Origin: Salvelinus alpinus
Taxonomy: Eukaryota > Chordata > Actinopteri > Salmoniformes > Salmonidae
Assembly: GCF_045679555.1 (NCBI RefSeq)
Contig: NC_092092.1
Location: 14,005,190-14,069,189 of the forward strand
Direction: 5' to 3'
DNA length: 64,000 nucleotides
Shown here: in pieces, positions 1,664 to 54,250 of the stretch
Layout: every line of letters starts with the position of its first letter
How positions within the stretch are numbered: the stretch's first letter is position 1
The notes under the pieces: generated by a model
What the model was told of the DNA's origin: nothing
What the model saw: the letters and a program-made list of their open reading frames with translations, nothing else
Databases searched by the model: none
Position numbers and translations under genes: made by a program

Positions 1664-3272
1664 TGGAAACACAGATGTAGATGGAAACACAGAGATCAGA
1701 CATCCATCTACTGTAGATGGAACCACAGAGATCAGACATCCATCTACTGTAGATGGAACCACAGAGATCAGACATCCGTCTACTGTAGATGGAACCACAG
1801 AGATCAGACATCCGTCTACTGTAGATGGAAACACAGAGATCAGACATCCGTCTACTGTAGATGGAACCACAGAGATCAGACATCCATCTACTGTAGATGG
1901 AACCACAGAGATCAGACATCCACCTACTGTAGATGGAACCACAGAGATCAGACATCCACCTACTGTAGATGGAACCACAGAGATCAGACATCCATCTACT
2001 GTAGATGGAACCACAGAGATCAGACATCCATCTACTGTAGATGGAACCACAGAGATCAGACATCCACCTACTGTAGATGGAACCACAGAGATCAGACATC
2101 CACCTAATGTAGATGGAACCACAGAGATCAGACATCCATCTACTGTAGATGGAACCACAGAGATCAGACATCCATCTACTGTAGATGGAAACAGAGATCA
2201 GACATCCATCTACTGTAGATGGAAACACAGAGATCAGACATCCGTCTACTGTAGATGGAACCACAGAGATCAGACATCCATCTACTGTAGATGGAAACAC
2301 AGAGATCAGACATCCATCTACTGTAGATGGAAACACAGAGACCAGACATCCACCTACTGTAGATGGAAACACAGAGATCAGACATCCATCTACTGTAGAT
2401 GGAACCACAGAGATCAGACATCCATCTACTGTAGATGGAACCACAGAGATCAGACATCCGTCTACTGTAGATGGAACCACAGAGATCAGACATCCGTCTA
2501 CTGTAGATGGAAACACAGAGATCAGACATCCGTCTACTGTAGATGGAACCACAGAGATCAGACATCCGTCTACTGTAGATGGAACCACAGAGATCAGACA
2601 TCCGTCTACTGTAGATGGAAACACAGAGATCAGACATCCATCTACTGTAGATGGAACCACAGAGATCAGACATCCATCTACTGTAGATGGAACCACAGAG
2701 ATCAGACATCCGTCTACTGTAGATGGAAACACAGAGATCAGACATCCGTCTACTGTAGATGGAACCACAGAGATCAGACATCCACCTACTGTAGATGGAA
2801 ACACAGAGACCAGACATCCATCTACTGTAGATGGAAACACAGAGATCAGACATCCATCTACTGTAGATGGAACCACAGAGATCAGACATCCATCTACTGT
2901 AGATGGAACCACAGAGACCAGACATCCATCTACTGTAGATGGAACCACAGAGATCAGACATCCGTCTACTGTAGATGGAACCACAGAGATCAGACATCCA
3001 TCTACTGTAGATGGAAACACAGAGATCAGACATCCATCTACTGTAGATGGAACCACAGAGATCAGACATCCGTCTACTGTAGATGGAACCACAGAGATCA
3101 GACATCCGTCTACTGTAGATGGAAACACAGAGATCAGACATCCGTCTACTGTAGATGGAACCACAGAGATCAGACATCCATCTACTGTAGATGGAACCAC
3201 AGAGATCAGACATCCATCTACTGTAGATGGCACCACTGTAGATCAGACATCCACATACTGTAGATGGCACCA
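1664..3272. repeat. 36-bp tandem array (minisatellite)
   Basis: About 43-44 copies of a 36-bp unit with core agatggaaccacagagatca. Main variants are aacc/aaac at the start and catccatc/catccgtc/catccacc inside. Because 36 is a multiple of three and the unit lacks stop triplets in several frames, long repetitive open frames occur on both strands. No splice sites, coding bias or domain support translation. Confidence 0.97.
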
Positions 3273-4960: not shown

Positions 4961-5235
4961 AATACGGTCAAAACTGTTGTTTTACATGTGAACGTGTAGC
5001 TACTTTTTAAGTTACTAACCTAACAGTCAACTTGTACAATACGTTAGGAGACAAAGCAGATTTCGTTCTTCATTTCACCCGTCACATTATGACGCTTACC
5101 GTAGTTTCTCAGAACAGTCTGTCGCGTGATGGTTTGTAAATAACAACATGAGAAAAAGGGAGCAGCTGTGTCTTTGGTTTCACTTGCTAGTTATCTCAGT
5201 AACTGGCTGAATTAATAAGGAGACTGGGCATCCTA

Positions 5236-6128
5236 TGCAGTGCATTTGGAAAGTATTCAGACCCCTTCCCTTTAACCACATTTTGTTACGTTACAGCCTT
5301 ATTCTAAAATGGATTAAATGTATGTTTTTTTCCTCATCAATCTAAACACAATACCCTATAATGACAAACCGAAAACAGGTTTGTACAGAATTTTGCACAT
5401 TTATTACAAATAAAAACAGAAATACCTTATTTACATAAGTATTCAGACCCTTTGCTATGAGACTCAAAATTGTGCTCATGTGCATCCTGTTTCCACTGAT
5501 CATCCTTGATGTTTCTACAACTTGATTGGAGTCCACCTGTGGTAAATTCAATTGATTGGACATGATTTGGAAAGGCACACACCTGTCTATATAAGGTCCC
5601 ACAGTTGACAGTGAATGTCAGAGCACAAACCAAGCCATGAGGTTGAAGGAATTGTCCGTAGAGCTCCAAGACAGGATTGTGTCGAGGCACAGATCTGGGG
5701 AAGGGTACCAAAACATTTATACAGCATTGAAGGTCCCCAAGAACACAGTGGCCATCATTCTTAAATGGAAGAGGTTTGGAACCACCAAGACTCTTCCTAG
5801 AGCTGGCCGCCCGGCCAAACTGAGCAATCGGTGGAGAAGGGACTTGGTCAGGGAGGTGATCAAGAACCCGATAGTCACTCTGACAGAGCTCCAGAGTTCC
5901 TCTGTGGAGATGGGAGAACCTTCCAGAAGGAAAACCTTCTCCGTAGCACTCCACCAATCAGGCCTTTATGGTAGAGTGACCAGACGGAAGCCTCTCCTCA
6001 GTAAAAGGTGTATGAAAGCCCGCTTGCAGTTTGCCAAAAGGCACCTAAAGGACTCTCAGACCATGAGAAACAAGATTCTCTGGTCTGTTGAAACCAAGAT
6101 TGAACTCTTTGGCCTGAATGCCAAGCGT
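5236..6128 (+). mobile_element. Tc1-like transposon, left half only
   Basis: The left inverted repeat (gcagtgcatttggaaagtat, then tcagaccc) is followed by the typical spacer and the N-terminal part of a transposase. The match to the complete relative at 55788-57530 stops after 'ctgaatgccaagcgt'. The second half of the transposase and the right end are missing, so it cannot move. Classification rests on the terminal sequence and the transposase. Confidence 0.9.
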
Positions 6129-6155
6129 GTTTGGATTCGGTCTTGTGTCAGGTAA
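5637..6155 (+). pseudogene. Tc1-like transposase, truncated and catalytically broken
   Basis: The reading frame opens with MRLKELSVELQDRIVSRHRS, the first helix-turn-helix of Tc1-type paired-like DNA-binding domains. It continues through the GRP linker (RAGRPAKLSNRW, near residues 55-66) and the second helix-turn-helix, and reaches the start of the DDE catalytic domain. Full-length Tc1 transposases are about 340 residues; this stops at 172, and the last ~15 codons come from unrelated DNA. The first catalytic aspartate, normally in WSDETK, is valine here (WSVETK). It is therefore inactive on two counts. The start is the conserved methionine of the family. Confidence 0.9.
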
Positions 6156-6474: not shown

Positions 6475-6482
6475 CCTTAGGG

Positions 6483-9400
6483 GAGCTAGAAACACAAGCA
6501 TTTAGCTACGTATTACTGTTGGAGCTAGAAACACAAGCATTTAGCTGGGTATTACTGTTGGAGCTAGAAACACAAGCATTTAGCTAGGTATTACTGTTGG
6601 AGCTAGGAACACAAGCATTCAGCTGGGTATTACTGTTGGAGCTAGAAACACAAGCATTTAGCTGGGTATTACTGTTGGAGCTAGAAACACAAGCATATTG
6701 CTAGGTATTACTGTTGGAGCAAGAAACACAAGCATTTAGTTAGATATTACTGTTGGAGCTAGAAACACAAGCTTTTAGTTAGGTATTACTGTTGAAGCTA
6801 GAAACACAAGCATTTAGCTAGGTATTACTGTTGGAGCAAGAAACACAAGCATTTAGCTAGGTATTACTGTTGGAGCTAGAAACACAAGCATATTGCTAGG
6901 TATTACTGTTGAAGCTAGAAACACAAGAATTTAGCTAGGTATTACTGTTGAAGCTAGAAACACAAGCATTTAGCTGGGTATTACTGTTGGAGCTAGAAAC
7001 ACAAGCATTTAGCTGGGTATTACTGTTGGAGCTAGAAACACAAGCATTTAGCTACGTATTACTGTTGGAGCTAGAAACACAAACATTTAGCTACGTATTA
7101 CTGTTGGAGCTAGAAACACAAGCATTTAGTTAGGTATTACTGTTGAAGCTAGAAACACAAGCATTTAGCTACGTATTACTGTTGGAGCTAGAAACACAAG
7201 CATATTGCTAGGTATTACTGTTGAAGCTAGAAACACAAGCATTTAGCTAGGTATTACTGTAGGAGCTAGAAACACAAGCATTTAGCTACATATTACTGTT
7301 GGAGCTAGAAACACAAGCATATTGCTAGGTATTACTGTTGAAGCTAGAAACACAAGCATTTACCTAGGTATTACTGTAGGAGCTAGAAACACAAGCATTT
7401 AGCTGGGTATTACTGTTGGAGCTAGAAACACAAGCATTTAGCTGGGTATTACTGTTGGAGCTAGAAACACAAGCATTTAGCTACGTATTACTGTTGGAGC
7501 AAGAAACACAAGCATTTAGCTGGGTATTACTGTACTGTTGGAGCCAGAAACACAAGCATTTAGTTAGGAATTACTGTTGGAGCTAGAAACACAAGCATTT
7601 AGTTAGGTATTACTGTTGGAGCTAGAAACACAAGCATTTAGCTGGGTATTACTGTTGGAGCTAGAAACACAAGCATTTAGCTGGGTATTACTGTTGGAGC
7701 TAGAAACACAAGCATATTAGCTAGGTATTACTGTTGGAGCTAGAAACACAAGCATTTAGCTGGGTATTACTGTTGGAGCTAGAAACACAAGCATTTAGCT
7801 ACGTATTACTGTTGGAGCAAGAAACACAAGCATTTAGCTAGGTATTACTGTTGGAGCTAGAAACACAAGCATTTAGCTGGGTATTACTGTTGGAGCTAGA
7901 AACACAAGCATTTAGCTGGGTATTACTGTTGGAGCTAGTAACACAAGCATATTGCTAGGTATTACTGTTGGAGCAAGAAACACAAGCATTTAGTTAGGTA
8001 TTACTGTTGGAGCTAGAAACACAAGCATTTAGCTGGGTATTACTGTTGGAGCTAGAAACACAAGCATATTGCTAGGTATTACTGTTGGAGCTAGAAACAC
8101 AAGCATTTAGCTGGGTATTACTGTTGGAGCTAGAAACACAAGCATTTAGCTGGGTATTACTGTTGGAGCTAGAAACACAAGCATTTAGCTACGTATTACT
8201 GTTGGAGCAAGAAACACAAGCATTTAGCTAGGTATTACTGTTGGAGCTAGAAACACAAGCATTTAGCTGGGTATTACTGTTGGAGCTAGAAACACAAGCA
8301 TTTAGCTGGGTATTACTGTTGGAGCTAGAAACACAAGCATTTAGCTGGGTATTACTGTTGGAGCTAGTAACACAAGCATATTGCTAGGTATTACTGTTGG
8401 AGCAAGAAACACAAGCATTTAGTTAGGTATTACTGTTGGAGCTAGAAACACAAGCATTTAGCTGGGTATTACTGTTGGAGCTAGAAACACAAGCATTTAG
8501 CTACGTATTACTGTTGGAGCTAGAAACACAAGCATTTAGTTAGGTATTACTGTTGAAGCTAGAAACACAAGCATTTAGCTACGTATTACTGTTGGAGCTA
8601 GAAACACAAGCATATTGCTAGGTATTACTGTTGGAGCTAGAAACACAAGCATTTAGCTAGGTATTACTGTTGGAGCTAGAAACACAAGCATATTGCTAGG
8701 TATTACTGTTGGAGCTAGAAACACAAGCATATTGCTAGGTATTACTGTACTGTTGGAGCTAGTAACACAAGCATATTGCTAGGTAGTACTGTTGGAGCTA
8801 GAAACACAAGCATATTGCTAGGTATTACTGTTGGAGCTAGAAACACAAGCATATTGTTAGTTATTACTGTTGGAGCTAGAAACACAAGCATATTGTTAGG
8901 TATTACTGTTGGAGCTAGAAACACAAGCATATTGCTAGGTATTACTGTTGGAGCTAGAAACACAAGCATATTGTTAGTTATTACTGTTGGAGCTAGAAAC
9001 ACAAGCATATTGCTAGGTATTACTGTTGGAGCTAGAAACACAAGCATATTGTTAGTTATTACTGTTGGAGCTAGAAACACAAGCATATTGTTAGTTATTA
9101 CTGTTGGAGCTAGAAACACAAGCATATTGCTAGGTCTTACTGTTGGAGCTAGAAACACAAGCATATTGCTAGGTATTACTGTTGGAGCTAGAAACACAAG
9201 CATATTGCTAGGTCTTACTGTTGGAGCTAGAAACACAAGCATATTGCTAGGTATTACTGTTGGAGCTAGAAACACAAGCATATTGCTAGGTATTACTGTT
9301 GGAGCTAGAAACACAAGCATATTGCTAGGTATTACTGTTGGAGCTAGAAACACAAGCATATTGCTAGGTATTACTGTTGGAGCTAGAAACACAAGCATAT

Positions 9401-12400
9401 TGCTAGGTATTACTGTTGGAGCTAGAAACACAAGCATATTGTTAGTTATTACTGTTGGAGCTAGAAACACAAGCATATTGCTAGGTATTACTGTTGGAGC
9501 TAGAAACACAAGCATTTAGCTAGGTATTACTGTTGGAGCTAGAAACACAAGCATTTAGCTGGGTATTATTGTTGGAGCTAGAAACACAAGCATTTAGCTG
9601 GGTATTACTGTTGGAGCTAGAAACACAAGCATTTAGCTGGGTATTACTGTTGGAGCTAGAAACACAAGCATTTAGCTGGGTATTACTGTTGGAGCTAGTA
9701 ACACAAGCATATTGCTAGGTATTACTGTTGGAGCAAGAAACACAAGCATTTAGTTAGGTATTACTGTTGGAGCTAGAAACACAAGCATTTAGCTGGGTAT
9801 TACTGTTGGAGCTAGAAACACAAGCATTTAGCTACGTATTACTGTTGGAGCTAGAAACACAAGCATTTAGTTAGGTATTACTGTTGAAGCTAGAAACACA
9901 AGCATTTAGCTACGTATTACTGTTGGAGCTAGAAACACAAGCATATTGCTAGGTATTACTGTTGGAGCTAGAAACACAAGCATTTAGCTAGGTATTACTG
10001 TTGGAGCTAGAAACACAAGCATATTGCTAGGTATTACTGTTGGAGCTAGAAACACAAGCATATTGCTAGGTAGTACTGTTGGAGCTAGAAACACAAGCAT
10101 ATTGCTAGGTATTACTGTTGGAGCTAGAAACACAAGCATATTGCTAGTTATTACTGTTGGAGCTAGAAACACAAGCATATTGCTAGTTATTACTGTTGGA
10201 GCTAGAAACACAAGCATATTGCTAGTTATTACTGTTGGAGCTAGAAACACAAGCATATTGCTAGGTATTACTGTTGGAGCTAGAAACACAAGCATATTGC
10301 TAGGTATTACTGTTGGAGCTAGAAACACAAGCATATTGTTAGTTATTACTGTTGGAGCTAGAAACACAAGCATATTGCTAGGTATTACTGTTGGAGCTAG
10401 AAACACAAGCATATTGCTAGGTCTTACTGTTGGAGCTAAAAACACAAGCATATTGCTAGGTATTACTGTTGGAGCTAGAAACACAAGCATATTGCTAGGT
10501 ATTACTGTTGAAGCTAGAAACACAAGCATATTGCTAGGTATTACTGTTGGAGCTAGAAACACAAGCATATTGCTAGGTATTACTGTTGGAGCTAGAAACA
10601 CAAGCATATTGTTAGTTATTACTGTTGGAGCTAGAAACACAAGCATATTGCTAGGTATTACTGTTGGAGCTAGAAACACAAGCATATTGCTAGGTCTTAC
10701 TGTTGGAGCTAGAAACACAAGCATATTGCTAGGTATTACTGTTGGAGCTAGAAACACAAGCATATTGCTAGGTATTACTGTTGGAGCTAGAAACACAAGC
10801 ATATTGCTAGGTATTACTGTTGGAGCTAGAAACACAAGCATATTGCTAGGTATTACTGTTGGAGCTAGAAACACAAGCATATTGCTAGTGTATTACTGTT
10901 GGAGCTAGAAACACAAGCATATTGTTAGTTATTACTGTTGGAGCTAGAAAACACAAGCATATTGTCTAGGTTATTACTGTTGGAGCTAGAAACACAAGCA
11001 GTATTGTCTAGGTTATTACTGTTGGAGCTAGAAACACAAGCATATTGCTAGGTCTTACTGTTGGAGCTAGAAACACAAGCATATTGCTAGGTATTACTGT
11101 TGGAGCTAGAAACACAAGCATATTGCTTAGTGTCATTACTGTTGGAGCTAGAAACACAAGCATATTGTCTAGTGTATTACTGTTGGAGCTAGAAACACAA
11201 GCATATTGTTAGGTATTACTGTTGGAGCTAGAAACACAAGCATATTGCTAGGTATTACTGTTGGAGCTAGAAACACAAGCATATTGCTAGGTATTACTGT
11301 TGGAGCTAGAAACACAAGCATATTGTTAGTTATTACTGTTGGAGCTAGAAACACAAGCATATTGTTAGTTATTACTGTTGGAGCTAGAAACACAAGCATA
11401 TTGTTAGTTATTACTGTTGGAGCTAGAAACACAAGCATATTGTTAGTTATTACTGTTGGAGCTAGAAACACAAGCATATTGTTAGTTATTACTGTTGGAG
11501 CTAGAAACACAAGCATATTGTTAGGTATTACTGTTGGAGCTAGAAACACAAGCATATTGCTAGGTATTACTGTACTGTTGGAGCTAGAAACACAAGCATT
11601 TAGCTAGGTATTACTGTTGGAGCTAGAAACACAAGCATATTGTTAGTTATTACTGTTGGAGCTAGAAACACAAGCATATTGCTAGGTATTACTGTACTGT
11701 TGGAGCTAGAAACACAAGCATATTGCTAGGTATTACTGTTGGAGCTAGAAACACAAGCATATTGCTAGGTATTACTGTTGGAGCTAGAAACACAAGCATA
11801 TTGCTAGGTATTACTGTTGGAGCTAGAAACACAAGCATATTGTTAGTTATTACTGTTGGAGCTAGAAACACAAGCATTTAGCTAGGTATTACTGTACTGT
11901 AGGAGCTAGAAACACAAGCATTTAGCTGGGTATTACTGTTGGAGCTAGAAACACAAGCATTTAGCTGGGTATTACTGTTGGAGCTAGAAACACAAGCATA
12001 TTGTTAGTTATTACTGTTGGAGCTAGAAACACAAGCATATTGTTAGTTATTACTGTTGGAGCTAGAAACACAAGCATATTGCTAGGTATCACTGTACTGT
12101 TGGAGCTAGAAACACAAGCATATTGCTAGGTATTACTGTTGGAGCTAGAAACACAAGCATATTTTTAGGTATTACTGTTGGAGCTAGAAACACAAGCATA
12201 TTGCTAGGTATTACTGATGGAGCTAGAAACACAAGCATATTGTTAGGTATTACTGTTGGAGCTAGAAACACAAGCATATTGCTAGGTATTACTGTACTGT
12301 TGGAGCTAGAAACACAAGCATATTGCTAGGTATTACTGTTGGAGCTAGAAACACAAGCATATTTTTAGGTATTACTGTTGGAGCTAGAAACACAAGCATA

Positions 12401-15400
12401 TTGCTAGGTATTACTGTTGGAACTAGAAACACAAGCATATTGCTAGGTATTACTGTTGAAGCTAGAAACACAAGCATTTAGCTAGGTATTACTGTAGGAG
12501 CTAGAAACACAAGCATTTAGCTACGTATTACTGTTGGAGCTAGAAACACAAGCATATTGCTAGGTATTACTGTTGAAGCTAGAAACACAAGCATTTAGCT
12601 AGGTATTACTGTACTGTAGGAGCTAGAAACACAAGCATTTAGCTGGGTATTACTGTTGGAGCTAGAAACACAAGCATTTAGCTGGGTATTACTGTTGGAG
12701 CTAGAAACACAAGCATTTAGCTGGGTATTACTGTTGGAGCTAGAAACACAAGCATTTAGCTACGTATTACTGTTGGAGCTAGAAACACAAGCATTTAGTT
12801 AGGTATTACTGTTGAAGCTAGAAACACAAGCATTTAGCTACGTATTACTGTTGGAGCTAGAAACACAAGCATATTGCTAGGTATTACTGTTGGAGCTAGA
12901 AACACAAGCATTTAGCTAGGTATTACTGTTGGAGCTAGAAACACAAGCATATTGCTAGGTATTACTGTTGGAGCTAGAAACACAAGCATATTGCTAGGTA
13001 TTACTGTTGGAGCTAGAAACACAAGCATATTGCTAGGTATTACTGTTGGAGCTAGAAACACAAGCATATTGTTAGTTATTACTGTTGGAGCAAGAAACAC
13101 AAGCATTTAGCTGGGTATTACTGTACTGTTGGAGCCAGAAACACAAGCATTTAGTTAGGTATTACTGTTGGAGCTAGTAACACAAGCATATTGCTAGGTA
13201 TCACTGTTGGAGCTAAAAACACAAGCATTTAGCTAGGTATTACTGTTGGAGCAAGAAACACAAGCATTTAGCTGGGTATTACTGTACTGTTGGAGCCAGA
13301 AACACAAGCATTTAGTTAGGTATTACTGTTGGAGCTAGAAACACAAGCATTTAGCTGGGTATTACTGTTGGAGCTAGAAACACAAGCATATTGCTAGGTA
13401 TCACTGTTGGAGCTAGAAACACAAGCATTTAGCTACGTATTACTGTTGGAGCAAGAAACACAAGCATTTAGCTAGGTATTACTGTTGGAGCTAGAAACAC
13501 AAGCATTTAGCTGGGTATTACTGTTGGAGCTAGAAACACAAGCATTTAGCTGGGTATTACTGTTGGAGCTAGAAACACAAGCATTTAGCTGGGTATTACT
13601 GTTGGAGCTAGTAACACAAGCATATTGCTAGGTATTACTGTTGAAGCTAGAAACACAAGCATATTGCTAGGTATTACTGTTGAAGCTAGAAACACAAGCA
13701 TTTAGTTAGGTATTACTGTTGGAGCTAGAAACACAAGCATTTAGCTGGGTATTACTGTTGGAGCTAGAAACACAAGCATATTGCTAGGTATTACTGTTGG
13801 AGCTAGAAACACAAGCATTTAGCTGCGTATTACTGTTGGAGCAAGAAACACAAGCATTTAGCTGGGTATTACTGTACTGTTGGAGCCAGAAACACAAGCA
13901 TTTAGTTAGGAATTACTGTTGGAGCTAGAAACACAAGCATTTAGTTAGGTATTACTGTTGGAGCTAGAAACACAAGCATTTGGCTGGGTATTACTGTTGG
14001 AGCTAGAAACACAAGCATTTAGCTGGGTATTACTGTTGGAGCTAGAAACACAAGCATATTGCTAGGTATTACTGTTGGAGCTAGAAACACAAGCATTTAG
14101 CTGGGTATTACTGTTGGAGCTAGAAACACAAGCATTTAGCTGGGTATTACTGTTGGAGCTAGAAACACAAGCATTTAGCTACGTATTACTGTTGGAGCAT
14201 GAAACACAAGCATTTAGCTACGTATTACTGTTGGAGCTAGAAACACAAGCATTTAGCTGGGTATTACTGTTGGAGCTAGAAACACAAGCATTTAGCTGGG
14301 TATTACTGTTGGAGCTAGAAACACAAGCATTTAGCTGGGTATTACTGTTGGAGCTAGTAACACAAGCATATTGCTAGGTATTACTGTTGGAGCAAGAAAC
14401 ACAAGCATTTAGTTAGGTATTACTGTTGGAGCTAGAAACACAAGCATTTAGCTGGGTATTACTGTTGGAGCTAGAAACACAAGCATTTAGCTACGTATTA
14501 CTGTTGGAGCTAGAAACACAAGCATTTAGTTAGGTATTACTGTTGAAGCTAGAAACACAAGCATTTAGCTACGTATTACTGTTGGAGCTAGAAACACAAG
14601 CATATTGCTAGGTATTACTGTTGGAGCTAGAAACACAAGCATTTAGCTAGGTATTACTGTTGGAGCTAGAAACACAAGCATATTGCTAGGTATTACTGTT
14701 GGAGCTAGAAACACAAGCATATTGCTAGGTATTACTGTACTGTTGGAGCTAGTAACACAAGCATATTGCTAGGTAGTACTGTTGGAGCTAGAAACACAAG
14801 CATATTGCTAGGTATTACTGTTGGAGCTAGAAACACAAGCATATTGCTAGGTATTACTGTTGGAGCTAGAAACACAAGCATATTGCTAGGTATTACTGTT
14901 GGAGCTAGAAACACAAGCATATTGCTAGGTATTACTGTTGGAGCTAGAAACACAAGCATATTGCTAGGTATTACTGTTGGAGCTAGAAACACAAGCATAT
15001 TGCTAGGTATTACTGTTGGAGCTAGAAACACAAGCATATTGTTAGTTATTACTGTTGGAGCTAGTAACACAAGCATATTGTTAGGTATTACTGTTGGAGC
15101 TAGTAACACGAGCATATTGCTAGGTATTACTGTTGGAGCTAGTAACACGAGCATATTGCTAGGTATCACTGTTGGAGCTAAAAACACAAGCATTTAGCTA
15201 GGTATTACTGTTGGAGCAAGAAACACAAGCATTTAGCTGGGTATTACTGTACTGTTGGAGCCAGAAACACAAGCATTTAGTTAGGTATTACTGTTGGAGC
15301 TAGAAACACAAGCATTTAGCTGGGTATTACTGTTGGAGCTAGAAACACAAGCATATTGCTAGGTATCACTGTTGGAGCTAGAAACACAAGCATTTAGCTA

Positions 15401-16172
15401 CGTATTACTGTTGGAGCAAGAAACACAAGCATTTAGCTAGGTATTACTGTTGGAGCTAGAAACACAAGCATTTAGCTGGGTATTACTGTTGGAGCTAGAA
15501 ACACAAGCATTTAGCTGGGTATTACTGTTGGAGCTAGAAACACAAGCATTTAGCTGGGTATTACTGTTGGAGCTAGAAACACAAGCATTTAGCTGGGTAT
15601 TACTGTTGGAGCTAGTAACACAAGCATATTGCTAGGTATTACTGTTGAAGCTAGAAACACAAGCATTTAGTTAGGTATTACTGTTGGAGCTAGAAACACA
15701 AGCATTTAGCTGGGTATTACTGTTGGAGCTAGAAACACAAGCATATTGCTAGGTATCACTGTTGGAGCTAGAAACACAAGCATTTAGCTACGTATTACTG
15801 TTGGAGCAAGAAACACAAGCATTTAGCTAGGTATTACTGTTGGAGCTAGAAACACAAGCATTTAGCTGGGTATTACTGTTGGAGCTAGAAACACAAGCAT
15901 TTAGCTGGGTATTACTGTTGGAGCTAGAAACACAAGCATTTAGCTGGGTATTACTGTTGGAGCTAGTAACACAAGCATATTGCTAGGTATTACTGTTGAA
16001 GCTAGAAACACAAGCATTTAGTTAGGTATTACTGTTGGAGCTAGAAACACAAGCATTTAGCTGGGTATTACTGTTGGAGCTAGAAACACAAGCATATTGC
16101 TAGGTATTACTGTTGGAGCTAGAAACACAAGCATTTAGCTGGGTATTACTGTTGGAGCTAGAAACACAAGCA
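6483..16172. repeat. 39-bp tandem array, about 9.7 kb
   Basis: About 248 copies of a 39-bp unit with core ggagctagaaacacaagcat followed by a variable part. Two main unit types exist: one ends tttagctgggtattactgtt (or aggt, acgt), the other has attgctaggt or attgttagtt in that place. Rare longer units carry an extra tactg ('tattactgtactgttgg'). Blocks of one type alternate with blocks of the other, and long stretches recur (compare 8461-8780 with 14451-14770). The open frames on both strands follow from the 13-codon unit and are not genes. Confidence 0.98.
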
Positions 16173-16449
16173 TTTAGCTAAGTTTTAACATCTGCAAGTC
16201 TGTGTATGTGACCAATACATTTTATTTGATCACCGCCATCTAGTGGCCAAAATATATAAATGACAAGATTTGGTTCAGTACTCCAGCACTGCAGGTGGCT
16301 GATAAATCACTAATATTAACTTTACGCTTTTTACAAACACAAAAGAATAAGAAAATGTACTTATTTCAAATGGATATATCCTCATGGTGCTGCCCATGCT
16401 GTCACAGACGGCATAATGGCACAGATACAAAAATGAGTCCTCTATCGGC
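16173..16449. other. Unique spacer; possible retroelement tail at its start
   Basis: The first bases (tgtgtatgtgaccaatacat, then tttatttga) resemble the 3' tail common to salmonid retroelements. This raises the possibility that the 39-bp array also grew inside a mobile element. The rest shows no gene. Confidence 0.45.
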
Positions 16450-19400
16450 AGGGAACCTAGCGGTTAGAGAGGCGAGCCAGCAACCGGAGGGTTGCCTGTT
16501 CGAATCCCAGGTCCGATGGGAGAAATCTGTCGGGAAGTGAGCTGGCAACCAGAGGGTTGCTGGTATCAAATCATAGATGCCATTGCCTGCCATCGTACCC
16601 TTGAGCAACAACAGCTCTCTGGGCTCTAAGTGAGGCAGCCCCACACACCTCTCCACCCCCCTCAACAACAGCTCTCTGGGCTCTAAGTGAAGCATCCCCA
16701 CACACCTCTCCACCCCCTCAACAACAGCTCTCTGGGCTCTAAGTGAAGCAGCCCCACACACCTCTCCACCCCCCACAACAACAGCTCTCTGGGCTCTTAG
16801 TGAAGCAGCCCCACACACCTCTCCACCCCCCACAACAACAGCTCTCTGGGCTCTTAGTGAAGCATCCCCACACACCTCTCCACCCCCCTCAACAACAGCT
16901 CTCTGGGCTCTAAGTGAAGCAGCCCCACACACCTCTCCACCCCCCTCAACAACAGCTCTCTGGGCTCTAAGTGAAGCATCCCCACACACCTCTCCACCCC
17001 CTCAACAACAGCTCTCTGGGCTCTAAGTGAAGCAGCCCCACACACCTCTCCACCCCCCACAACAACAGCTCTCTGGGCTCTTAGTGAAGCAGCCCCACAC
17101 ACCTCTCCACCCCCCACAACAACAGCTCTCTGGGCTCTTAGTGAAGCATCCCCACACACCTCTCCACCCCCCTCAACAACAGCTCTCTGGGCTCTAAGTG
17201 AAGCAGCCCCACACACCTCTCCACCCCCCACAACAACAGCTCTCTGGGCTCTAAGTGAAGCAGCCCCCCACACCTCTCCACCCCCCTCAACAACAGCTCT
17301 CTGGGCTCTAAGTGAAGCAGCCCCACACACCTCTCCACCCCCCTCAACAACAGCTCTCTGGGCTCTTAGTGAAGCAGCCCCACACACCTCTCCACCCCCC
17401 ACAACAACAGCTCTCTGGGCTCTTAGTGAAGCAGCCCCACACACCTCTCCACCCCCCACAACAACAGCTCTCTGGGCTCTTAGTGAAGCAGCCCCACACA
17501 CCTCTCCACCCCCCACAACAACAGCTCTCTGGGCTCTAAGTGAAGCAGCCCCACACACCTCTCCACCCCCCACAACAACAGCTCTCTGGGCTCTAAGTGA
17601 AGCAGCCCCACACACCTCTCCACCCCCACAACAACAGCTCTCTGGGCTCTAAGTGAAGCAGCCCCACACACCTCTCCAACCCCCACAACAACAGCTCTCT
17701 GGGCTCTTAGTGAAGCAGCCCCACACACCTCTCCACCCCCCACAACAACAGCTCTCTGGGCTCTAAGTGAAGCAGCCCCACACACCTCTCCACCCCCCAC
17801 AACAACAGCTCTCTGGGCTCTTAGTGAAGCAGCCCCACACACCTCTCCACCCCCCACAACAACAGCTCTCTGGGCTCTAAGTGAAGCAGCCCAACACACC
17901 TCTCCACCCCCCTCAACAACAGCTCTCTGGGCTCTAAGTGAGGCATCCCCCCACAACAACAGCTCACTGGGCTCTAAGTGAAGCAGCCCCCCACACCTCT
18001 CCAACCCCCACAACAACAGCTCTCTGGGCTCTAAGTGAAGCAGCCCCACACACCTCTCCACCCCCCACAACAACAGCTCTCTGGGCTCTTAGTGAAGCAG
18101 CCCCACACACCTCTCCACCCCCCACAACAACAGCTCTCTGGGCTCTAAGTGAAGCAGCCCCACACACCTCTCCACCCCCCACAACAACAGCTCTCTGGGC
18201 TCTAAGTGAAGCAGCCCCACACACCTCTCCACCCCCACAACAACAGCTCTCTGGGCTCTAAGTGAAGCAGCCCCACACACCTCTCCAACCCCCACAACAA
18301 CAGCTCTCTGGGCTCTTAGTGAAGCAGCCCCACACACCTCTCCACCCCCCACAACAACAGCTCTCTGGGCTCTAAGTGAAGCAGCCCCACACACCTCTCC
18401 ACCCCCCACAACAACAGCTCTCTGGGCTCTTAGTGAAGCAGCCCCACACACCTCTCCACCCCCCACAACAACAGCTCTCTGGGCTCTAAGTGAAGCAGCC
18501 CAACACACCTCTCCACCCCCCTCAACAACAGCTCTCTGGGCTCTAAGTGAGGCATCCCCCCACAACAACAGCTCACTGGGCTCTAAGTGAAGCAGCCCCC
18601 CACACCTCTCCAACCCCCACAACAACAGCTCTCTGGGCTCTAAGTGAGGCAGCCCCACACACCTCTCCACCCCCCACAACAACAGCTCTCTGGGCTCTAA
18701 GTGAAGCAGCCCCACACACCTCTCCACCCCCCACAACAACAGCTCTCTGGGCTCTAAGTGAAGCAGCCCCACACACCTCTCCACCCCCACAACAACAGCT
18801 CTCTGGGCTCTAAGTGAAGCAGCCCCACACACCTCTCCAACCCCCACAACAACAGCTCTCTGGGCTCTTAGTGAAGCAGCCCCACACACCTCTCCACCCC
18901 CCACAACAACAGCTCTCTGGGCTCTAAGTGAAGCAGCCCCACACACCTCTCCACCCCCCACAACAACAGCTCTCTGGGCTCTTAGTGAAGCAGCCCCACA
19001 CACCTCTCCACCCCCCACAACAACAGCTCTCTGGGCTCTAAGTGAAGCAGCCCAACACACCTCTCCACCCCCCTCAACAACAGCTCTCTGGGCTCTAAGT
19101 GAGGCATCCCCCCACAACAACAGCTCACTGGGCTCTAAGTGAAGCAGCCCCCCACACCTCTCCAACCCCCACAACAACAGCTCTCTGGGCTCTAAGTGAG
19201 GCAGCCCCACACACCTCTCCACCCCCACAACAACAGCTCTCTGGGCTCTAAGTGAAGCATCCCCCCACACCTCTCCAACCCCCACAACAACAGCTCTCTG
19301 GGCTCTTAGTGAAGCAGCCCCACACACCTCTCCACCCCCCACAACAACAGCTCTCTGGGCTCTAAGTGAGGCATCCCCCCACACCTCTCCAACCCCCACA

Positions 19401-22400
19401 ACAACAGCTCTCTGGGCTCTAAGTGAGGCATCCCCCCACACCTCTCCAACCCCCACAACAACAGCTCTCTGGGCTCTAAGTGAGGCATCCCCCCACACCT
19501 CTCCACCCCCCACAACAACAGCTCTCTGGGCTCTAAGTGAAGCAGCCCCACACACCTCTCCAACCCCCACAACAACAGCTCTCTGGGCTCTAAGTGAAGC
19601 AGCCCCACACACCTCTCCACCCCCCACAACAACAGCTCTCTGGGCTCTAAGGGAAGCAGCCCAACACACCTCTCCAACCCCCACAACAACAGCTCTCTGG
19701 GCTCTAAGTGAAGCAGCCCCACACACCTCTCCAACCCCCACAACAACAGCTCTCTGGGCTCTAAGTGAAGCAGCCCCACACACCTCTCCACCCCCCTCAA
19801 CAACAGCTCACTGGGCTCTTAGTGAAGCAGCCCCACACACCTCTCCACCCCCCACAACAACAGCTCTCTGGGCTCTAAGTGAAGCAGCCCCACACACCTC
19901 TCCAACCCCCACAACAACAGCTCTCTGGGCTCTAAGTGAAGCAGCCCCACACACCTCTCCAACCCCCACAACAACAGCTCTCTGGGCTCTTAGTGAAGCA
20001 GCCCCACACACCTCTCCACCCCCCACAACAACAGCTCTCTGGGCTCTAAGTGAAGCAGCCCCACATCTCTCTCCAACCCCCACAACAACAGCTCTCTGGG
20101 CTCTAAGTGAAGCAGCCCCCACATCTCTTCTCCAACCCCCAAAACAACAGCTCTCTGGGCTCTAAGTGAGGCAGCCCCACACACCTCTCCACCCCCCACA
20201 ACAACAGCTCTCTGGGCTCTAAGTGAAGCAGCCCCACACACCTCTCCACCCCCCACAACAACAGCTCTCTGGGCTCTAAGTGAAGCAGCCCCACACACCT
20301 CTCCACCCCCACAACAACAGCTCTCTGGGCTCTAAGTGAGGCAGCCCCACACACCTCTCCACCCCCCACAACAACAGCTCTCTGGGCTCTTAGTGAAGCA
20401 GCCCCACACACCTCTCCACCCCCCACAACAACAGCTCTCTGGGCTCTAAGTGAAGCAGCCCCACACACCTCTCCACCCCCCACAACAACAGCTCTCTGGG
20501 CTCTTAGTGAAGCAGCCCCACACACCTCTCCACCCCCCACAACAACAGCTCTCTGGGCTCTAAGTGAAGCAGCCCAACACACCTCTCCACCCCCCTCAAC
20601 AACAGCTCTCTGGGCTCTAAGTGAGGCATCCCCCCACAACAACAGCTCACTGGGCTCTAAGTGAAGCAGCCCCCCACACCTCTCCAACCCCCACAACAAC
20701 AGCTCTCTGGGCTCTAAGTGAGGCAGCCCCACACACCTCTCCACCCCCACAACAACAGCTCTCTGGGCTCTAAGTGAAGCATCCCCCCACACCTCTCCAA
20801 CCCCCACAACAACAGCTCTCTGGGCTCTTAGTGAAGCAGCCCCACACACCTCTCCACCCCCCACAACAACAGCTCTCTGGGCTCTAAGTGAGGCATCCCC
20901 CCACACCTCTCCAACCCCCACAACAACAGCTCTCTGGGCTCTAAGTGAGGCATCCCCCCACACCTCTCCAACCCCCACAACAACAGCTCTCTGGGCTCTA
21001 AGTGAGGCATCCCCCCACACCTCTCCACCCCCCACAACAACAGCTCTCTGGGCTCTAAGTGAAGCAGCCCCACACACCTCTCCAACCCCCACAACAACAG
21101 CTCTCTGGGCTCTAAGTGAAGCAGCCCCACACACCTCTCCACCCCCCACAACAACAGCTCTCTGGGCTCTAAGGGAAGCAGCCCAACACACCTCTCCAAC
21201 CCCCACAACAACAGCTCTCTGGGCTCTAAGTGAAGCAGCCCCACACACCTCTCCAACCCCCACAACAACAGCTCTCTGGGCTCTAAGTGAAGCAGCCCCA
21301 CACACCTCTCCACCCCCCTCAACAACAGCTCACTGGGCTCTTAGTGAAGCAGCCCCACACACCTCTCCACCCCCCACAACAACAGCTCTCTGGGCTCTAA
21401 GTGAAGCAGCCCCACACACCTCTCCAACCCCCACAACAACAGCTCTCTGGGCTCTAAGTGAAGCAGCCCCACACACCTCTCCAACCCCCACAACAACAGC
21501 TCTCTGGGCTCTTAGTGAAGCAGCCCCACACACCTCTCCACCCCCCACAACAACAGCTCTCTGGGCTCTAAGTGAGGCAGCCCCACACACCTCTCCACGC
21601 CCCACAACAACAGCTCTCTGGGCTCTAAGTGAAGCAGCCCCACACACCTCTCCACCCCCCACAACAACAGCTCTCTGGGCTCTCAAAGCCTGAAGCATCC
21701 CCCCACAACAGCTCACTGGGCTCAAGTGAGCAGCCCCCCACACCTCTCCACCCAACAGCTCTCTGGGCTCTAAGTGAGGCAGCCCCACACACCTCTCCAC
21801 CCCCCACAACAACAGCTCTCTGGGCTCTAAGTGAAGCAGCCCCACACACCTCTCCACCCCCCACAACAACAGCTCTCTGGGCTCTAAGTGAAGCAGCCCC
21901 ACACACCTCTCCACCCCCACAACAACAGCTCTCTGGGCTCTAAGTGAAGCAGCCCCACACACCTCTCCAACCCCCACAACAACAGCTCTCTGGGCTCTTA
22001 GTGAAGCAGCCCCACACACCTCTCCACCCCCCACAACAACAGCTCTCTGGGCTCTAAGTGAAGCAGCCCCACACACCTCTCCACCCCCCACAACAACAGC
22101 TCTCTGGGCTCTTAGTGAAGCAGCCCCACACACCTCTCCACCCCCCACAACAACAGCTCTCTGGGCTCTAAGTGAAGCAGCCCAACACACCTCTCCACCC
22201 CCCTCAACAACAGCTCTCTGGGCTCTAAGTGAGGCATCCCCCCACAACAACAGCTCACTGGGCTCTAAGTGAAGCAGCCCCCCACACCTCTCCAACCCCC
22301 ACAACAACAGCTCTCTGGGCTCTAAGTGAGGCAGCCCCACACACCTCTCCACCCCCACAACAACAGCTCTCTGGGCTCTAAGTGAAGCATCCCCCCACAC

Positions 22401-24715
22401 CTCTCCAACCCCCACAACAACAGCTCTCTGGGCTCTTAGTGAAGCAGCCCCACACACCTCTCCACCCCCCACAACAACAGCTCTCTGGGCTCTAAGTGAG
22501 GCATCCCCCCACACCTCTCCAACCCCCACAACAACAGCTCTCTGGGCTCTAAGTGAGGCATCCCCCCACACCTCTCCAACCCCCACAACAACAGCTCTCT
22601 GGGCTCTAAGTGAGGCATCCCCCCACACCTCTCCACCCCCCACAACAACAGCTCTCTGGGCTCTAAGTGAAGCAGCCCCACACACCTCTCCAACCCCCAC
22701 AACAACAGCTCTCTGGGCTCTAAGTGAAGCAGCCCCACACACCTCTCCACCCCCCACAACAACAGCTCTCTGGGCTCTAAGGGAAGCAGCCCAACACACC
22801 TCTCCAACCCCCACAACAACAGCTCTCTGGGCTCTAAGTGAAGCAGCCCCACACACCTCTCCAACCCCCACAACAACAGCTCTCTGGGCTCTAAGTGAAG
22901 CAGCCCCACACACCTCTCCACCCCCCTCAACAACAGCTCACTGGGCTCTTAGTGAAGCAGCCCCACACACCTCTCCACCCCCCACAACAACAGCTCTCTG
23001 GGCTCTAAGTGAAGCAGCCCCACACACCTCTCCAACCCCCACAACAACAGCTCTCTGGGCTCTAAGTGAAGCAGCCCCACACACCTCTCCACCCCCACAA
23101 CAACAGCTCTCTGGGCTCTAAGTGAGGCAGCCCCACACACCTCTCCACCCCCACAACAACAGCTCTCTGGGCTCTAAGTGAAGCAGCCCCACATCTCTCT
23201 CCAACCCCCACAACAACAGCTCTCTGGGCTCTAAGTGAAGCAGCCCCACATCTCTCTCCAACCCCCAAAACAACAGCTCTCTGGGCTCTAAGTGAGGCAG
23301 CCCCACACACCTCTCCACCCCCCACAACAACAGCTCTCTGGGCTCTAAGTGAGGCAGCCCCACACACCTCTCCACCCCCACAACAACAGCTCTCTGGGCT
23401 CTAAGTGAAGCAGCCCCACACACCTCTCCACCCCCCACAACAACAGCTCTCTGGGCTCTAAGTGAAGCAGCCCCCCACACACCTCTCCACCCCCCACAAC
23501 AACAGCTCTCTGGGCTCTAAGTGAGGCAGCCCCACACACCTCTCCACCCCCCACAACAACAGCTCTCTGGGCTCTAAGTGAGGCAGCCCCACACACCTCT
23601 CCACCCCCCTCAACAACAGCTCTCTGGGCTCTAAGTGAGGCAGCCCCACATCTCTCTCCAACCCCCACAACAACAGCTCTCTGGGCTCTAAGTGAGGCAG
23701 CACCACACACCTCTCCACCCCCCACAACAACAGCTCTCTGGGCTCTAAGTGAGGCAGCCCCACACACCTCTCCAACCCCCACAACAACAGCTCTCTGGGC
23801 TCTAAGTGAGGCAGCCCCACACACCTCTCCAACCCCCACAACAACAGCTCTCTGGGCTCTAAGTGAGGCAGCCCCTCACACCTCTCCAACCCCCACAACA
23901 ACAGCTCTCTGGGCTCTAAGTGAAGCAGCCCCACACACCTCTCCACCCCCACAACAACAGCTCTCTGGGCTCTAAGTGAAGCAGCCCCACACACCTCTCC
24001 ACCCCCCACAACAACAGCTCTCTGGGCTCTAAGTGAAGCAGCCCCCCACACACCTCTCCACCCCCCACAACAACAGCTCTCTGGGCTCTAAGTGAAGCAG
24101 CCCCACACACCTCTCCACCCCCACAACAACAGCTCTCTGGGCTCTAAGTGAGGCAGCCCCACACACCTCTCCACCCCCCTCAACAACAGTTCTCTGGGCT
24201 CTAAGTGAAGCAGCCCCACACACCTCTCCACCCCCTCAACAACAGCTCTCTGGGCTCTAAGTGAGGCAGCCCCACACACCTCTCCACCCCCCACAACAAC
24301 AGCTCTCTGGGCTCTTAGTGAAGCAGCCCCACACACCTCTCCACCCCCCTCAACAACAGCTCTCTGGGCTCTAAGTGAGGCAGCCCCACACACCTCTCCA
24401 CCCCCACAACAACAGCTCTCTGGGCTCTAAGTGAAGCAGCCCCACACACCTCTCCACCCCCTCAACAACAGCTCTCTGGGCTCTAAGTGAGGCAGCCCCA
24501 CACACCTCTCCACCCCCCTCAACAACAGCTCTCTGGGCTCTAAGTGAAGCAGCCCCACACACCTCTCCAACCCCCACAACAACAGCTTTCAACAACACAC
24601 CTCTCCAAAAATATGTACATTATGTATGTATTTCGGAGAGGTTGGGTTAAAAGCGGATGTCAAATTTATTTTGGACAATTGTGTGCACTTGACCAATGAT
24701 TAAAATGTGTAGAAA
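16450..24715 (+). mobile_element. tRNA-derived SINE split by internal tandem expansion
   Basis: The left part (16450-16620) has a tRNA-like head with an A-box-like segment (acctagcggttagagaggcg) and a B box (ctgttcgaatccc). The body continues (ccattgcctgccatcgtacc, cttgagcaac). The right part (about 24590-24715) holds the matching 3' body: acctctccaaaaatatgtac, then a stretch with ggttaaaagcgga and gtgcacttgaccaatgat. In an ordinary copy of this SINE type the segment 'acaacagctctctgggctct' occurs once between these two parts. Here it is repeated about 140 times. Naming it one SINE is inference from the two matching halves. Confidence 0.8.
16607..24600. repeat. 57-bp satellite array grown from the SINE interior, about 8 kb
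   Basis: About 140 copies of a 57-bp unit with core acaacagctctctgggctct, followed by aagtgaagcagccccacac and a C-rich spacer. Variants include ctcttagtg, gaggcagcc, gcatccccccac, ccaacccccac and ccccctcaac. They recur in a fixed order over longer periods: near-identical blocks begin around 19803, 21325 and 22933 (steps of 1522 and 1608 bp), and smaller blocks recur about every 609 bp (17938, 18547). A rearranged unit lies at 21680-21760. The 19-codon unit gives long meaningless open frames. Confidence 0.97.
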
Positions 24716-25113
24716 TCTGGGGATGAGGATTGCTACAATGACACGTATTGGACACCTGGATAGTTCAATAATGCCTTTTCTTTTATTGCTATCTAAACTA
24801 GAGATATAATCAAAAGATAATTGTTAGTCATTATCCAGACAGCTGTTAACCTAGCCTGGCATTGCATGTCTCACAGTCTCAGGCATCTAAACACACTGTG
24901 GTCATACATCGCCTTGCAGAACAAGCTAATAAAATCGAACAAAAGTGGGACAACACTGATTTAATTGGCTCAGAATTGTTTGAGAATTAAACCATGACAA
25001 CAGTGTTACATCATACAGAATAACTAGTCAGAGAATGTTTCTGAATACATAAACAGGCTTCCTACTAACTACATTTAAATTATGAAAACAGAAGCATTAC
25101 ACTATAAGGGAGT
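24716..25113 (-). other. 3' flank / probable 3' UTR of tbata
   Basis: This unique AT-rich DNA lies downstream of the tbata stop codon. A minus-strand AATAAA (24782-24787) about 330 bases past the stop could serve as the poly(A) signal. If so, transcription ends close to the edge of the SINE-derived array. No other gene is seen. Confidence 0.45.
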
Positions 25114-36000: not shown

Positions 36001-39000
36001 TCTCCGCCCTCTCAGGGTTGGGCGTCTCAGGCTCTGCACACTCTTGTATTGCATCGTACCTGGCAGGCTGCTCAGACCAGGTGAGATGGAGAGGATCAGT
36101 GTCTGCAACACATACTATCACTACTGGTGTCCCCCCCAGAGCCCACATACTATCACTACTGGTGTCCCCCCCAGAGCCCACATACTATCACTACTGGTGT
36201 CCCCCCCCAGAGCCACTGTAATATCACTACTGGTGCCCCCCACCCCAGAGCCCACATACTATCACTACTGGTGTCCCCCCCCCCAGAGCCCACATACTAT
36301 CACTACTGGTGTCCCCCCCCCCAGAGCCACTGTAATATCACTACTGGTGCACCCCACCCCAGAGCCCACATACTATCACTACTGGTGTCCCCCCCCAGAG
36401 CCCCTGTAATATCACTACTGGTGTCCCCCCCCAGAGCCCACATACTATCACTACTGGTGTCCCCCCCCAGAGCCCCTGTAATATCACTACTGGTGCCCCC
36501 CACCCCAGAGCCCACATACTCTCACTACTGGTGTCCCCCAGAGCCCACGTACTATCACTACTGGTGTCCCCCCCCCCCCAGAGCCCACATACTATCACTA
36601 CTGGTGCCCCCCCCCCCCCCCCCCCCACCCCAGAGCCCACGTACTATCACTACTGGTGTCCCCCAGAGCCCACATACTATCACTACTGGTGCCCCCCCCC
36701 CCCCCCACCCCAGAGCCCACGTAATATCCCTTCTGGTGTCCCCCAGAGCCCACATACTCTCACTACTGGTGTCCCCCAGGGCTCACGTGCATCACTACTG
36801 GTGTCCCCCAGAGTGTAACGGCAGTCTAGCTCTTCCTCCTCCTCGTACGAGGAGAGGCGAGAAGGATCGGAGGACCAATGTGCAGCGTGGTAAGTTTCCA
36901 TGATTTAATAACAAGACAACTAGACAAAATACAAAACAACAAACGTACTAACCGTCACAGTCCCGTGTGGCACAAACACTGACACAGGAAACAACCACCC
37001 ACAAATCCCCAACACAAAACAAGCCACCTATATATGATTCTCAATCAGGGACAACGATTGACAGCTGCCTCTGATTGAGAACCATATTAGGCTGAACACA
37101 GAAACAGACAAACTAGACACACAACATAAAATGCCCACCCAACTCACGTCCTGACCAACACTAAAACAAGCACAACACCTATGAACTCTGGTCAGGACGT
37201 GACACAGAGCCCACGTACTATCACTACTGGTGTCCCCCAGAGCCCACATACTCTCACTACTGGTGTCCCCCAGGGCTCGGTTCTAGGCCCTCTCATCTTC
37301 TCTCTATCCACCAAGTCACTCAGCTCTGTCATATCCTCACATGGTCTCTCCTATCACTGCTATGAGGATGACACTCAACTACTTTTCTCCTTCCCGCTTC
37401 TGACACCTAGGTGGCGACACTCATCTCAGCTTGGATGTCGGCCCACCACCTCAAACTCAACAACACGGAGCTGCTCTTTCTACCGGGAAGGCCTGCCCGC
37501 TCCAAGACCTCTCTCTGTCATGGTTGACAACTCCGCAAAGTGTCCCCCTTCCATAGTGCAATGAACCTTGGCGTGACCCTGGACAACACACTGTCGTTCT
37601 CGCTCCTGCAGGTTCATGTTCTACAGCAGTCGAAGAGTACAACCCTCACACAGGAAGAGGCACAGGTAGTGATCCAGGATCTTGTCCTCTCCCGTCTGGA
37701 CTACTGCTACTCTCTGTTGGCTGGGCTCCCTGCTTGTGTCATCAAACCCCTGCAACTTATCCAGAATGGCGCAGTCCGCCTGGTGTTTAACCTTCCTATG
37801 TTCACCATTGTCACACCGCTCCTCCACACAGTCCACTAGCTTCCAGTCGAAGCTCGCATCATCTTCAAGACCCTGGTGCTTGAGCAGCAAGGGGAACCAC
37901 CCCTCCCTAACTTCAGGCTTTCTTTCTTTCTATTGTGTTATTGAGTGTACGTTTGTTTATGTGTAACTCTGTGTTGTTGTTTGTGTCGCACTGCTTTGCT
38001 TTATCTTGTTCAGGTCGCAGGTGTAAATGAGAACTTGTTCTCAACTGGCCTACCTGGTTAAATAAAGGTGAAATAAAAATATATAAATAACTTCAGGCGA
38101 TGCTCAAACCCTATATCCCAACCCGAGTACTCTGTTCACCACCTCTGGTCTCTTGGCCCTCCCACCCCTACAGGAGGGAGGCTCCCACTCAGCCCAGTCA
38201 AATATCCCAACCCGGGTACTCTGTTCACCACCTCTGGTCTCTTGGCCCTCACACCCCTACAGGAGGGAGGCTCCCGCTCAGCCCAGTCAAATATCCCAAC
38301 CCGAGTACTCTGTTCCGCCACCTCTGGTCTCTTGGCCCTCCCACCCCTACAGGAGGGAGGCTCCCGCTCAGCCCAGTCAAATATCCCAACCCGGGTACTC
38401 TGTTCACCACCTCTGGTCTCTTGGCCCTCCCACCCCTACAGGAGGGAGGCTCCCGCTCAGCCCAGTCAAATATCCCAACCCGAGTACTCTGTTCACCACC
38501 TCTGGTCTCTTGGCCCTCCCACCCCTACAGGAGGGAGGCTCCCGCTCAGCCCAGTCAAATATCCCAACCCGAGTACTCTGTTCACCACCTCTGGTCTCTT
38601 GGCCCTCCCACCCCTACAGGAGGGAGGCTCCCGCTCAGCCCAGTCAAATATCCCAACCCGAGTACTCTGTTCACCACCTCTGGTCTCTTGGCCCTCCCAC
38701 CCCTACAGGAGGGAGGCTCCCGCTCAGCCCAGTCAAAACTCTCCCCTGTCCTGGAACCCCAATGGTGGAACAAGCGGAATCCCTGCTCATCTTCCCAAAA
38801 TGTCGGAAACCTTATTTCTTTGAAGAGTATCTTCAATAACTCTCAAGGCACCCCCGACTATACTAGGATATGATGGGGACCAGAAGAACAGAGCAGGCCA
38901 TGTCATAAGAAGGTAGACAAAAGAGACAATGACTAACAAGAACCTGAGACGGCAACAGACAAGACGCAGAGAAAGTGACAGAAGAGGGCAGATGGAGAGA

Positions 39001-46848: not shown

Positions 46849-47244
46849 TGGGTTTCGAACGGCCCGAACGGTTTGGCTTACAAAGAACTGGTAGGACCAC
46901 TCTATGGAAAGATGTGACTCACCAACACGATGGTGTTCTTCGTTTTGCTCTACGACCCACAAGCGTCACGGAAATCGTCTGAAGTCGTTACAGCCGATCT
47001 CCCTACTTCTGTCTGTAATGTCCGAACAGTTTGGGCTACACACTCATATGACCCATCCATGGAGAGTTAAGTCTCTCGCGAACACGTACATGTTGGTTGT
47101 GTTGCTCTAGGACGCCCACAAGCCTCACAAGACTCATCTGAAGAGAGCCCGCTACCAACATTTTTTATGGAAATACAAAATGGAAGTAGTGGTTCCATTT
47201 GTGTGGTTGTTCCACTGGATATCATAAGGTGAATGCACCAATTT
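46849..47244. repeat. Unclassified repeat with a diverged internal duplication
   Basis: The stretch 46898-46984 (ttgctctacgacccacaagc, gtctgaag) resembles 47057-47142 (ttgctctaggacgcccacaa, atctgaag), an old duplication with about 160-bp spacing. No coding function is seen. Confidence 0.5.
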
Positions 47245-47305
47245 GTAAGTCGCTCTGGATAAGAGCGTCTGCTAAATGACTTAAATGTTCAATGTAAATG
47301 TAAGT
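47245..47305 (+). mobile_element. Teleost SINE 3' tail
   Basis: It contains gtaagtcgctctggataaga and gcgtctgctaaatgac, a tail widespread in teleost SINEs, ending in ATGTAAATGT-type simple repeats. Confidence 0.8.
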
Positions 47306-54169: not shown

Positions 54170-54250
54170 TTCGCCTTATCAAATGTTATTGGTCACATAC
54201 ACATGGTTAGCAGATGTAATTGCGAGTGTAGCGAAATGCTTGTGCGTCGA
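54170..54250. repeat. Interspersed repeat piece near ppif
   Basis: The text ttattggtcacatacacatg, gcagatgtaattgcgagtgt and agcgaaatgcttgtg is repeated in diverged form at about 57966-58012. Confidence 0.6.

What the first reader, a model, noticed from the sequence alone, without database searches (positions are those of the whole stretch)
16450..24715. An 8-kb satellite that grew inside a single SINE
The head of a tRNA-derived SINE lies at 16450-16620 and its 3' body at 24590-24715. Everything between is about 140 copies of one 57-bp internal SINE segment. This catches a satellite at its birthplace with both parental flanks still attached, and shows how a dispersed retroelement can seed long tandem DNA. 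The array edges fall where the unit is single-copy in the SINE, which suggests replication slippage or unequal exchange rather than repeated SINE insertion.
Basis: partly seen in the sequence, partly recalled or inferred. Interest (0 to 1): 0.8.

Follow-up and report, generated by a model that had tools for sequence, protein, structure and literature searches.

The report
Minisatellite grown inside one SINE
A fish-like DNA window holds an 8-kb tandem array that most likely grew by copying an inner piece of one small mobile element, a known way for satellites to start, here apparently with both ends of the element still in place.

Summary
The array is real: 142 monomers of about 57 bp plus one broken copy, 16606-24606. 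Its left flank holds a B box (one of 3 strict sites in 64 kb) and an A-box-like stretch that fits the recalled consensus only with an extra base, so a degraded tRNA-type SINE head is likely, not proven. The last copy runs into a 3' body with which its end forms a strong stem-loop. Best reading: an internal segment of one SINE was duplicated and grew in place, partly by large blocks (1339 bp repeated exactly). The decisive test, the unit once in other copies of the SINE, could not be run: the genome search did not answer in nine attempts, and other scans gave no convincing copy. TSDs are inconclusive, and edges are not more diverged than the middle. The kind is published: SINE-derived satellites in squamates, some with both SINE ends (PMC10702118). 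The setting may matter more: about 57% of the window is tandem repeat, and the neighbouring 39-bp array also runs into what looks like a mobile-element end. Verdict: likely a new member of a known kind.

The parts
16446..16605 (+). presumed SINE head (start inferred): A-box-like TAGCGGTTAG 16458-16467, B box GTTCGAATCC 16498-16507
   Evidence: strict B box GTTCGANTCC occurs 3 times in the window, here and at 43075 and 57287; A box fits recalled consensus TRGYNNANNNG only with an extra base. One search found the exact string once and in 0 of 100 shuffles, but that pattern was read off this head. No tRNA called
16474..16560 (+). 22-bp stretch present twice in the head (16474-16495, 16539-16560; 86%)
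   Evidence: weak: E 0.09-0.13
16606..24576 (+). tandem array of 142 monomers of about 57 bp
18623..19961 (+). 1339-bp block (23.5 units), exact copy at 21753-23091
   Evidence: monomer-level blocks
18841..20053 (+). 1213-bp block, exact copy at 20363-21575
24577..24606 (+). truncated last copy, inner part missing, 3' end ACACACCTCTCC kept
   Evidence: alignment
24599..24642 (+). stem-loop across the right edge: ACCTCTCC (unit end, 24599-24606) with GGAGAGGT (3' body, 24635-24642)
   Evidence: fold of 24580-24660: z -5.53, 0 of 200 shuffles as good; an 8-bp arm alone in 326 of 20000 random stretches
24607..24717 (+). presumed 3' body of the SINE, not repeated in the window; right end not sharply fixed
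   Evidence: sequence; only 12- to 15-bp chance-level matches elsewhere (E 0.76)

Best explanation
An old tRNA-type SINE (about 16446-16605, one unit, about 24607-24717) had an internal segment of about 57 bp duplicated head to tail. Shown: the array, its phase, its two different flanks and exact multi-monomer block repeats. Inferred: the flanks are the two ends of one SINE; the first duplication was a slippage or short-homology event inside it; then unequal exchange or slipped replication lengthened the array, by single or few units and later by blocks of about 10 to 23 units. A 40-bp short monomer, explained by one deletion between two CCCCCCACA stretches, occurs five times, each time between the same two monomer types, so it most likely arose once and was copied within blocks. 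No function is needed; the array is most likely a neutral, length-variable minisatellite.
For: Array anatomy. B box in the left flank, one of three strict sites in the window. Unit end and right flank form one stem-loop. BLAST of head alone and body alone finds no copy inside the array. Identical runs of 23, 21 and 19 monomers against at most 5 in 200 shuffles of monomer order, with exact repeats of 1339, 1213 and 1121 bp. Monomers ending in CTCAA are 8 of the first 13 and 5 of the last 8 but 9 of the 121 between (positions; limits chosen after seeing the data), as if older edges flank a younger middle. Published precedent.
Against: No independent copy of the SINE was found, so the single-copy state of the unit in the parent is not shown. 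The A box fails the plain recalled consensus (0 matches in the head; one extra base needed; that laxer form also matches at 43038). The TSD candidate is no better than chance: 33% of 5000 control pairs score as high. Mean edits to consensus are lower at the edges (1.7 first ten, 1.8 last ten) than in the middle (2.5), the reverse of the simplest unequal-exchange expectation; 40-bp and other indel monomers add to the middle value. Short direct repeats flanking the unit, which one published model asks for, were not established.
Confidence: 0.7

Rival explanations
1. The SINE family as a whole already carries tandem 57-bp repeats (a SINE with an internal VNTR) and this is one long copy; the satellite was not born at this locus.
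For: The head holds a weak internal duplication; SINEs with short internal duplications are mentioned in PMC10702118.
Against: Nothing here tests it directly; no second copy of the family is visible in this window.
Confidence: 0.13
2. The two flanks belong to different elements, and the array only happens to lie between a tRNA-like piece and another repeat.
For: TSD not shown; no consensus match; A box imperfect; left edge joins the head abruptly.
Against: Stem-loop between unit end and right flank; head, one unit and body sum to about 330 bp, within the 100 to 600 bp quoted for SINEs in PMC9659126.
Confidence: 0.13
3. Copy number and the exact kilobase blocks are partly an assembly artefact; the true array is shorter or longer. 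This can be true together with the best explanation.
For: Blocks of up to 1339 bp are identical to the base; no read data here.
Against: The block copies lie at several different distances (3130, 1522, 1608, 609 bp), and the 39-bp neighbour array also has exact blocks, up to 625 bp. No N in the window.
Confidence: 0.15
4. The array is a protein-coding repeat (57 bp is 19 codons).
For: Open frames of up to 564 aa run through parts of it.
Against: Overlapping frames on both strands are open, and 56- and 40-bp monomers shift them.
Confidence: 0.01

Closest known systems
SINE-derived satellites (sSats) of squamate reptiles, Vassetzky et al. 2023, PMC10702118
   Same: Tandem repeat of an internal SINE portion (67 nt in snakes), up to hundreds of units, terminal units running on into the SINE; minor variants have both SINE ends; longer loci are more homogeneous (longest cobra locus 320 monomers, 94%).
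   Different: Fish-like host; both ends kept, the minor form there; one locus seen here; SINE family not confirmed by consensus; chromosome position unknown.
Minisatellites from TEs in human, Ahmed and Liang 2012, PMC3389668
   Same: Local tandem duplication of a TE part; the abstract gives at least 7,276 TRs, 23% of minisatellites/satellites, as TE-derived.
   Different: Of the 6,817 TRs there that two initiation models leave unexplained, the majority have only two units; here 142.
VNTR from SINE B1 in mouse, as listed in reviews PMC6947457 and PMC9659126
   Same: SINE-internal seed of an unstable array.
   Different: 6-bp unit there, about 57 bp here; original paper not seen.

Membership tests
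SINE-derived satellite (sSat) | tandem unit derived from part of a SINE | tested here: inconclusive
SINE-derived satellite (sSat) | terminal unit(s) extended to the SINE terminus | tested here: inconclusive
   first unit continues from the presumed head and the last copy into the presumed 3' body; the SINE termini themselves are inferred
SINE-derived satellite (sSat) | at least four middle monomers, homogeneous | tested here: met
   142 monomers, mean pairwise identity 93%
SINE-derived satellite (sSat) | preference for subtelomeric regions | not testable with these tools
   chromosome position of the window unknown
tRNA-derived SINE | Pol III A and B boxes in the 5' head | tested here: inconclusive
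   strict B box present; A box fits the recalled consensus only with an extra base; exact-string test was post hoc
tRNA-derived SINE | target-site duplication | tested here: inconclusive
tRNA-derived SINE | many dispersed genomic copies | not testable with these tools
   The genome search unanswered in nine calls; no copy elsewhere in the window
minisatellite | unit of 10-100 bp in tandem (definition as in PMC5241972) | tested here: met

The most novel reading that the evidence does not exclude
The window is a regional factory of tandem DNA, where different mobile-element copies are independently turned into long minisatellites. The 57-bp array (SINE) and the 39-bp array 418 bp away (mobile-element 3' end) would be two independent seedings by one local, sequence-indifferent amplification process, such as a subtelomeric recombination hot region.
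Probability: 0.35. Interest if true: 0.55.

Novelty: new member of a known kind. Interest (0 to 1): 0.32.

Why it matters
If right, it is a readable case of a retroelement part becoming long tandem DNA in what looks like a fish, with both parental ends kept, so the order of growth can be worked out unit by unit and tested at the same locus in relatives. The principle is already in print for squamates and mammals. The density of different arrays around it makes the window a good place to ask whether satellite birth depends on the seed sequence or on the region.

Tried and rejected
Coding repeat: rejected, overlapping open frames on both strands, shifted by 56- and 40-bp monomers. Repeated SINE insertion: rejected, no head or body sequence in the array (one search had left in-array rows out of its printout, so the test was run again without unit letters). 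Intact tRNA: ARAGORN gives none; Rfam gives none at gathering scores, and the two weak matches score 17.9 and 15 against gathering scores of 90. Other members of the SINE in the window: the two other strict B-box sites, at 43075 and 57287, resemble the head around the B box only (head scores reached by 49 and 13 of 1000 controls) and not the unit or body (323 to 866 of 1000); at 58250-58560 the head score is reached by 97 of 1000 and unit and body by 849 and 366, and 55600-55720 shows nothing.

Outside copies: pattern scans of viral contigs (none; 26 loci, of which 19 show similarity to the 3' body at E up to 0.1, at most 31 bp long, around the pattern) and genome contigs (none; one locus, L027, with 19 bp of similarity to the unit), and BLAST of the 3' body against phages (none). 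These collections hold bacteria, archaea and viruses, so a miss says nothing about fish. Paper searches for printed SINE motifs (5 of 5 listed, 20 of 22 listed) showed only unrelated titles.

TSD as proof of one insertion: not better than chance. Expectation that edges are more diverged: not met on mean edits. Left flank of the 39-bp array against the upstream part of its presumed parent: no similarity (707 of 1000 controls as good).

Full report
OBSERVATION. TRF covers 16606-24587 with rows of period 57 and 171. An anchor split gives 142 monomers (141 spacings: 113 of 57 bp, 18 of 56, 5 of 40, 3 of 59, 1 of 41, 1 of 47) in 34 sequence types; all pairs together average 93% identity. A broken last copy at 24577-24606 keeps both unit ends but lacks the inner part.

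FLANKS. The left flank holds TAGCGGTTAG and GTTCGAATCC 30 bases apart (16458-16507). One search finds this exact pair once in the window and in 0 of 100 shuffles, but I had read the pattern off the head, so that control shows only that the string is rare. Against box motifs recalled from memory, the B box is strict (one of 3 such sites in the window), while the A box is met only if one extra base is allowed; that laxer pair matches at 16458 and also at 43038. No tRNA is called. A degraded tRNA-type head is therefore likely, not proven. The right flank starts where the last unit ends in ACCTCTCC; this pairs with GGAGAGGT 28 bases further on in single-copy sequence, and the 81-base stretch folds far better than its shuffles (z -5.53, 0 of 200). 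An 8-bp arm alone is less telling (326 of 20000 random stretches), and part of the fold lies wholly within the flank. Head alone and body alone have no copy in the array, and elsewhere only matches of 12 to 22 bp at E 0.09 or worse. Together this makes one element the likeliest source: head, one unit, body, about 330 bp. The TSD test did not help (33% of 5000 controls as good).

WHAT COULD NOT BE SHOWN. The route to the host genome, the genome search, did not complete in nine calls. Pattern scans of prokaryote and virus collections gave nothing convincing, which is uninformative for a fish. From memory I would place the element among fish SINEs of the salmonid kind, whose body I recall as holding one comparable segment; this is a lead, not a test. 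The window fits a ray-finned fish (Tc1/Sleeping Beauty-type transposase domains in the frame 5595-6152; a UnaL2 LINE 3' element at 47232-47285), but no call names the species. The window has other B-box sites, at 43075 and 57287; the stretch around 57287 looks to me, from memory, like a different salmonid SINE. Neither shares the unit or body tested here.

HOW IT GREW. Coded by monomer type, the array contains identical runs of 23, 21 and 19 monomers, where 200 shuffles of monomer order give at most 5; at base level the longest exact repeats are 1339, 1213 and 1121 bp. A 40-bp monomer, explained by a deletion between two CCCCCCACA stretches, occurs five times, always between the same two types: most simply one event, then copying within blocks. 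Monomers ending in CTCAA are 8 of the first 13 and 5 of the last 8, but 9 of the 121 between (positions; limits chosen after looking), as if older edges flank a younger middle. Against the simplest edge model, mean edits to consensus are 1.7 and 1.8 in the outer tens and 2.5 in the 122 between. Large-block unequal exchange, or slipped replication over long distances, fits best; the first duplication is inferred only.

SURROUNDINGS. I merged the TRF rows into 28 intervals, leaving out a few short rows; they cover 36,472 of 64,000 bases, 57%. The 39-bp array at 6482-16187 ends 418 bp left of the SINE array. Its last unit and right flank (16153-16225) align with a non-tandem stretch at 54256-54178 (74.7% over 79 bases, E 3e-7), and part of the flank with 57983-57954 (86.7% over 30, E 6e-4). 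The flank alone scores 46 against that first stretch, above all 3000 controls (maximum 38). Its left flank does not match (707 of 1000 controls as good). So this neighbour also seems seeded from a dispersed element, with one parental end kept. It too shows exact blocks, up to 625 bp.

KNOWN OR NEW. Vassetzky et al. 2023 (PMC10702118; abstract, passages and sections on snakes, localization and Discussion seen) describe satellites from SINE portions in 56 squamate genomes, most with one extended terminal unit, minor variants with both SINE ends, up to 1000 units, leaning to subtelomeric regions; they call it uncertain whether these are restricted to squamates. Ahmed and Liang 2012 (PMC3389668; abstract and section 3.4 seen) count at least 7,276 TE-derived tandem repeats in human. 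Reviews PMC6947457 and PMC9659126 (passages) list further SINE-seeded cases; PMC11955569 (passages) reports SINE- and LINE-derived parts in catfish satellites; PMC12692304 (passages) cites the squamate work. Passages of PMC5241972 and PMC7599744 were seen; of these only the size definition of a minisatellite (PMC5241972) was used. In the listings of searches (20 of 33 listed; 20 of 22), 25, 26, 27 and 58 I saw no title or abstract start that reports this locus or this SINE as a satellite; the library holds open-licence papers only.

VERDICT. The setting, many different arrays side by side with two that seem seeded by mobile elements, is the part most worth following.

Noticed in passing
6482-16187 and 54178-54256: The 9.7-kb 39-bp array runs at its right end into sequence resembling a non-tandem stretch at 54178-54256 (minus strand), and more weakly 57954-57983; a second array that seems seeded by a mobile element, 418 bp from the SINE array.
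   Followed up: partly
1-64000: About 57% of the window lies in tandem arrays of many different units (28, 36, 39, 57, 29, 60, 41, 89, 23, 36 bp and others).
   Followed up: partly
47999-48448: A 38-bp tandem repeat (48305-48448) starts just after the end (48302) of similarity to the Tc1-like copy at 5234-5546.
   Followed up: partly
37975-38113: The 89-bp array (38113-38737) begins 46 bases after a stretch shared with 56602-56688; may also be seeded beside a dispersed repeat.
   Followed up: no
1676-3272: The 36-bp unit has complementary ends and folds as a hairpin (-6.3 kcal/mol as DNA).
   Followed up: no
60238-60783 (minus): A reading frame matches a retroviral envelope family (TLV_coat, E 1.3e-8), probably an endogenous retrovirus fragment.
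   Followed up: no
57287 and 43075: Two further strict Pol III B-box sites; the stretch around 57287 looks, from memory, like another fish SINE, and 58266-58364 resembles 57286-57382 (86% over 99 bases).
   Followed up: partly
16474-16495 and 16539-16560: The SINE head contains a 22-bp stretch twice (86%), possibly a dimeric head or an earlier internal duplication; weak (E 0.09-0.13).
   Followed up: no
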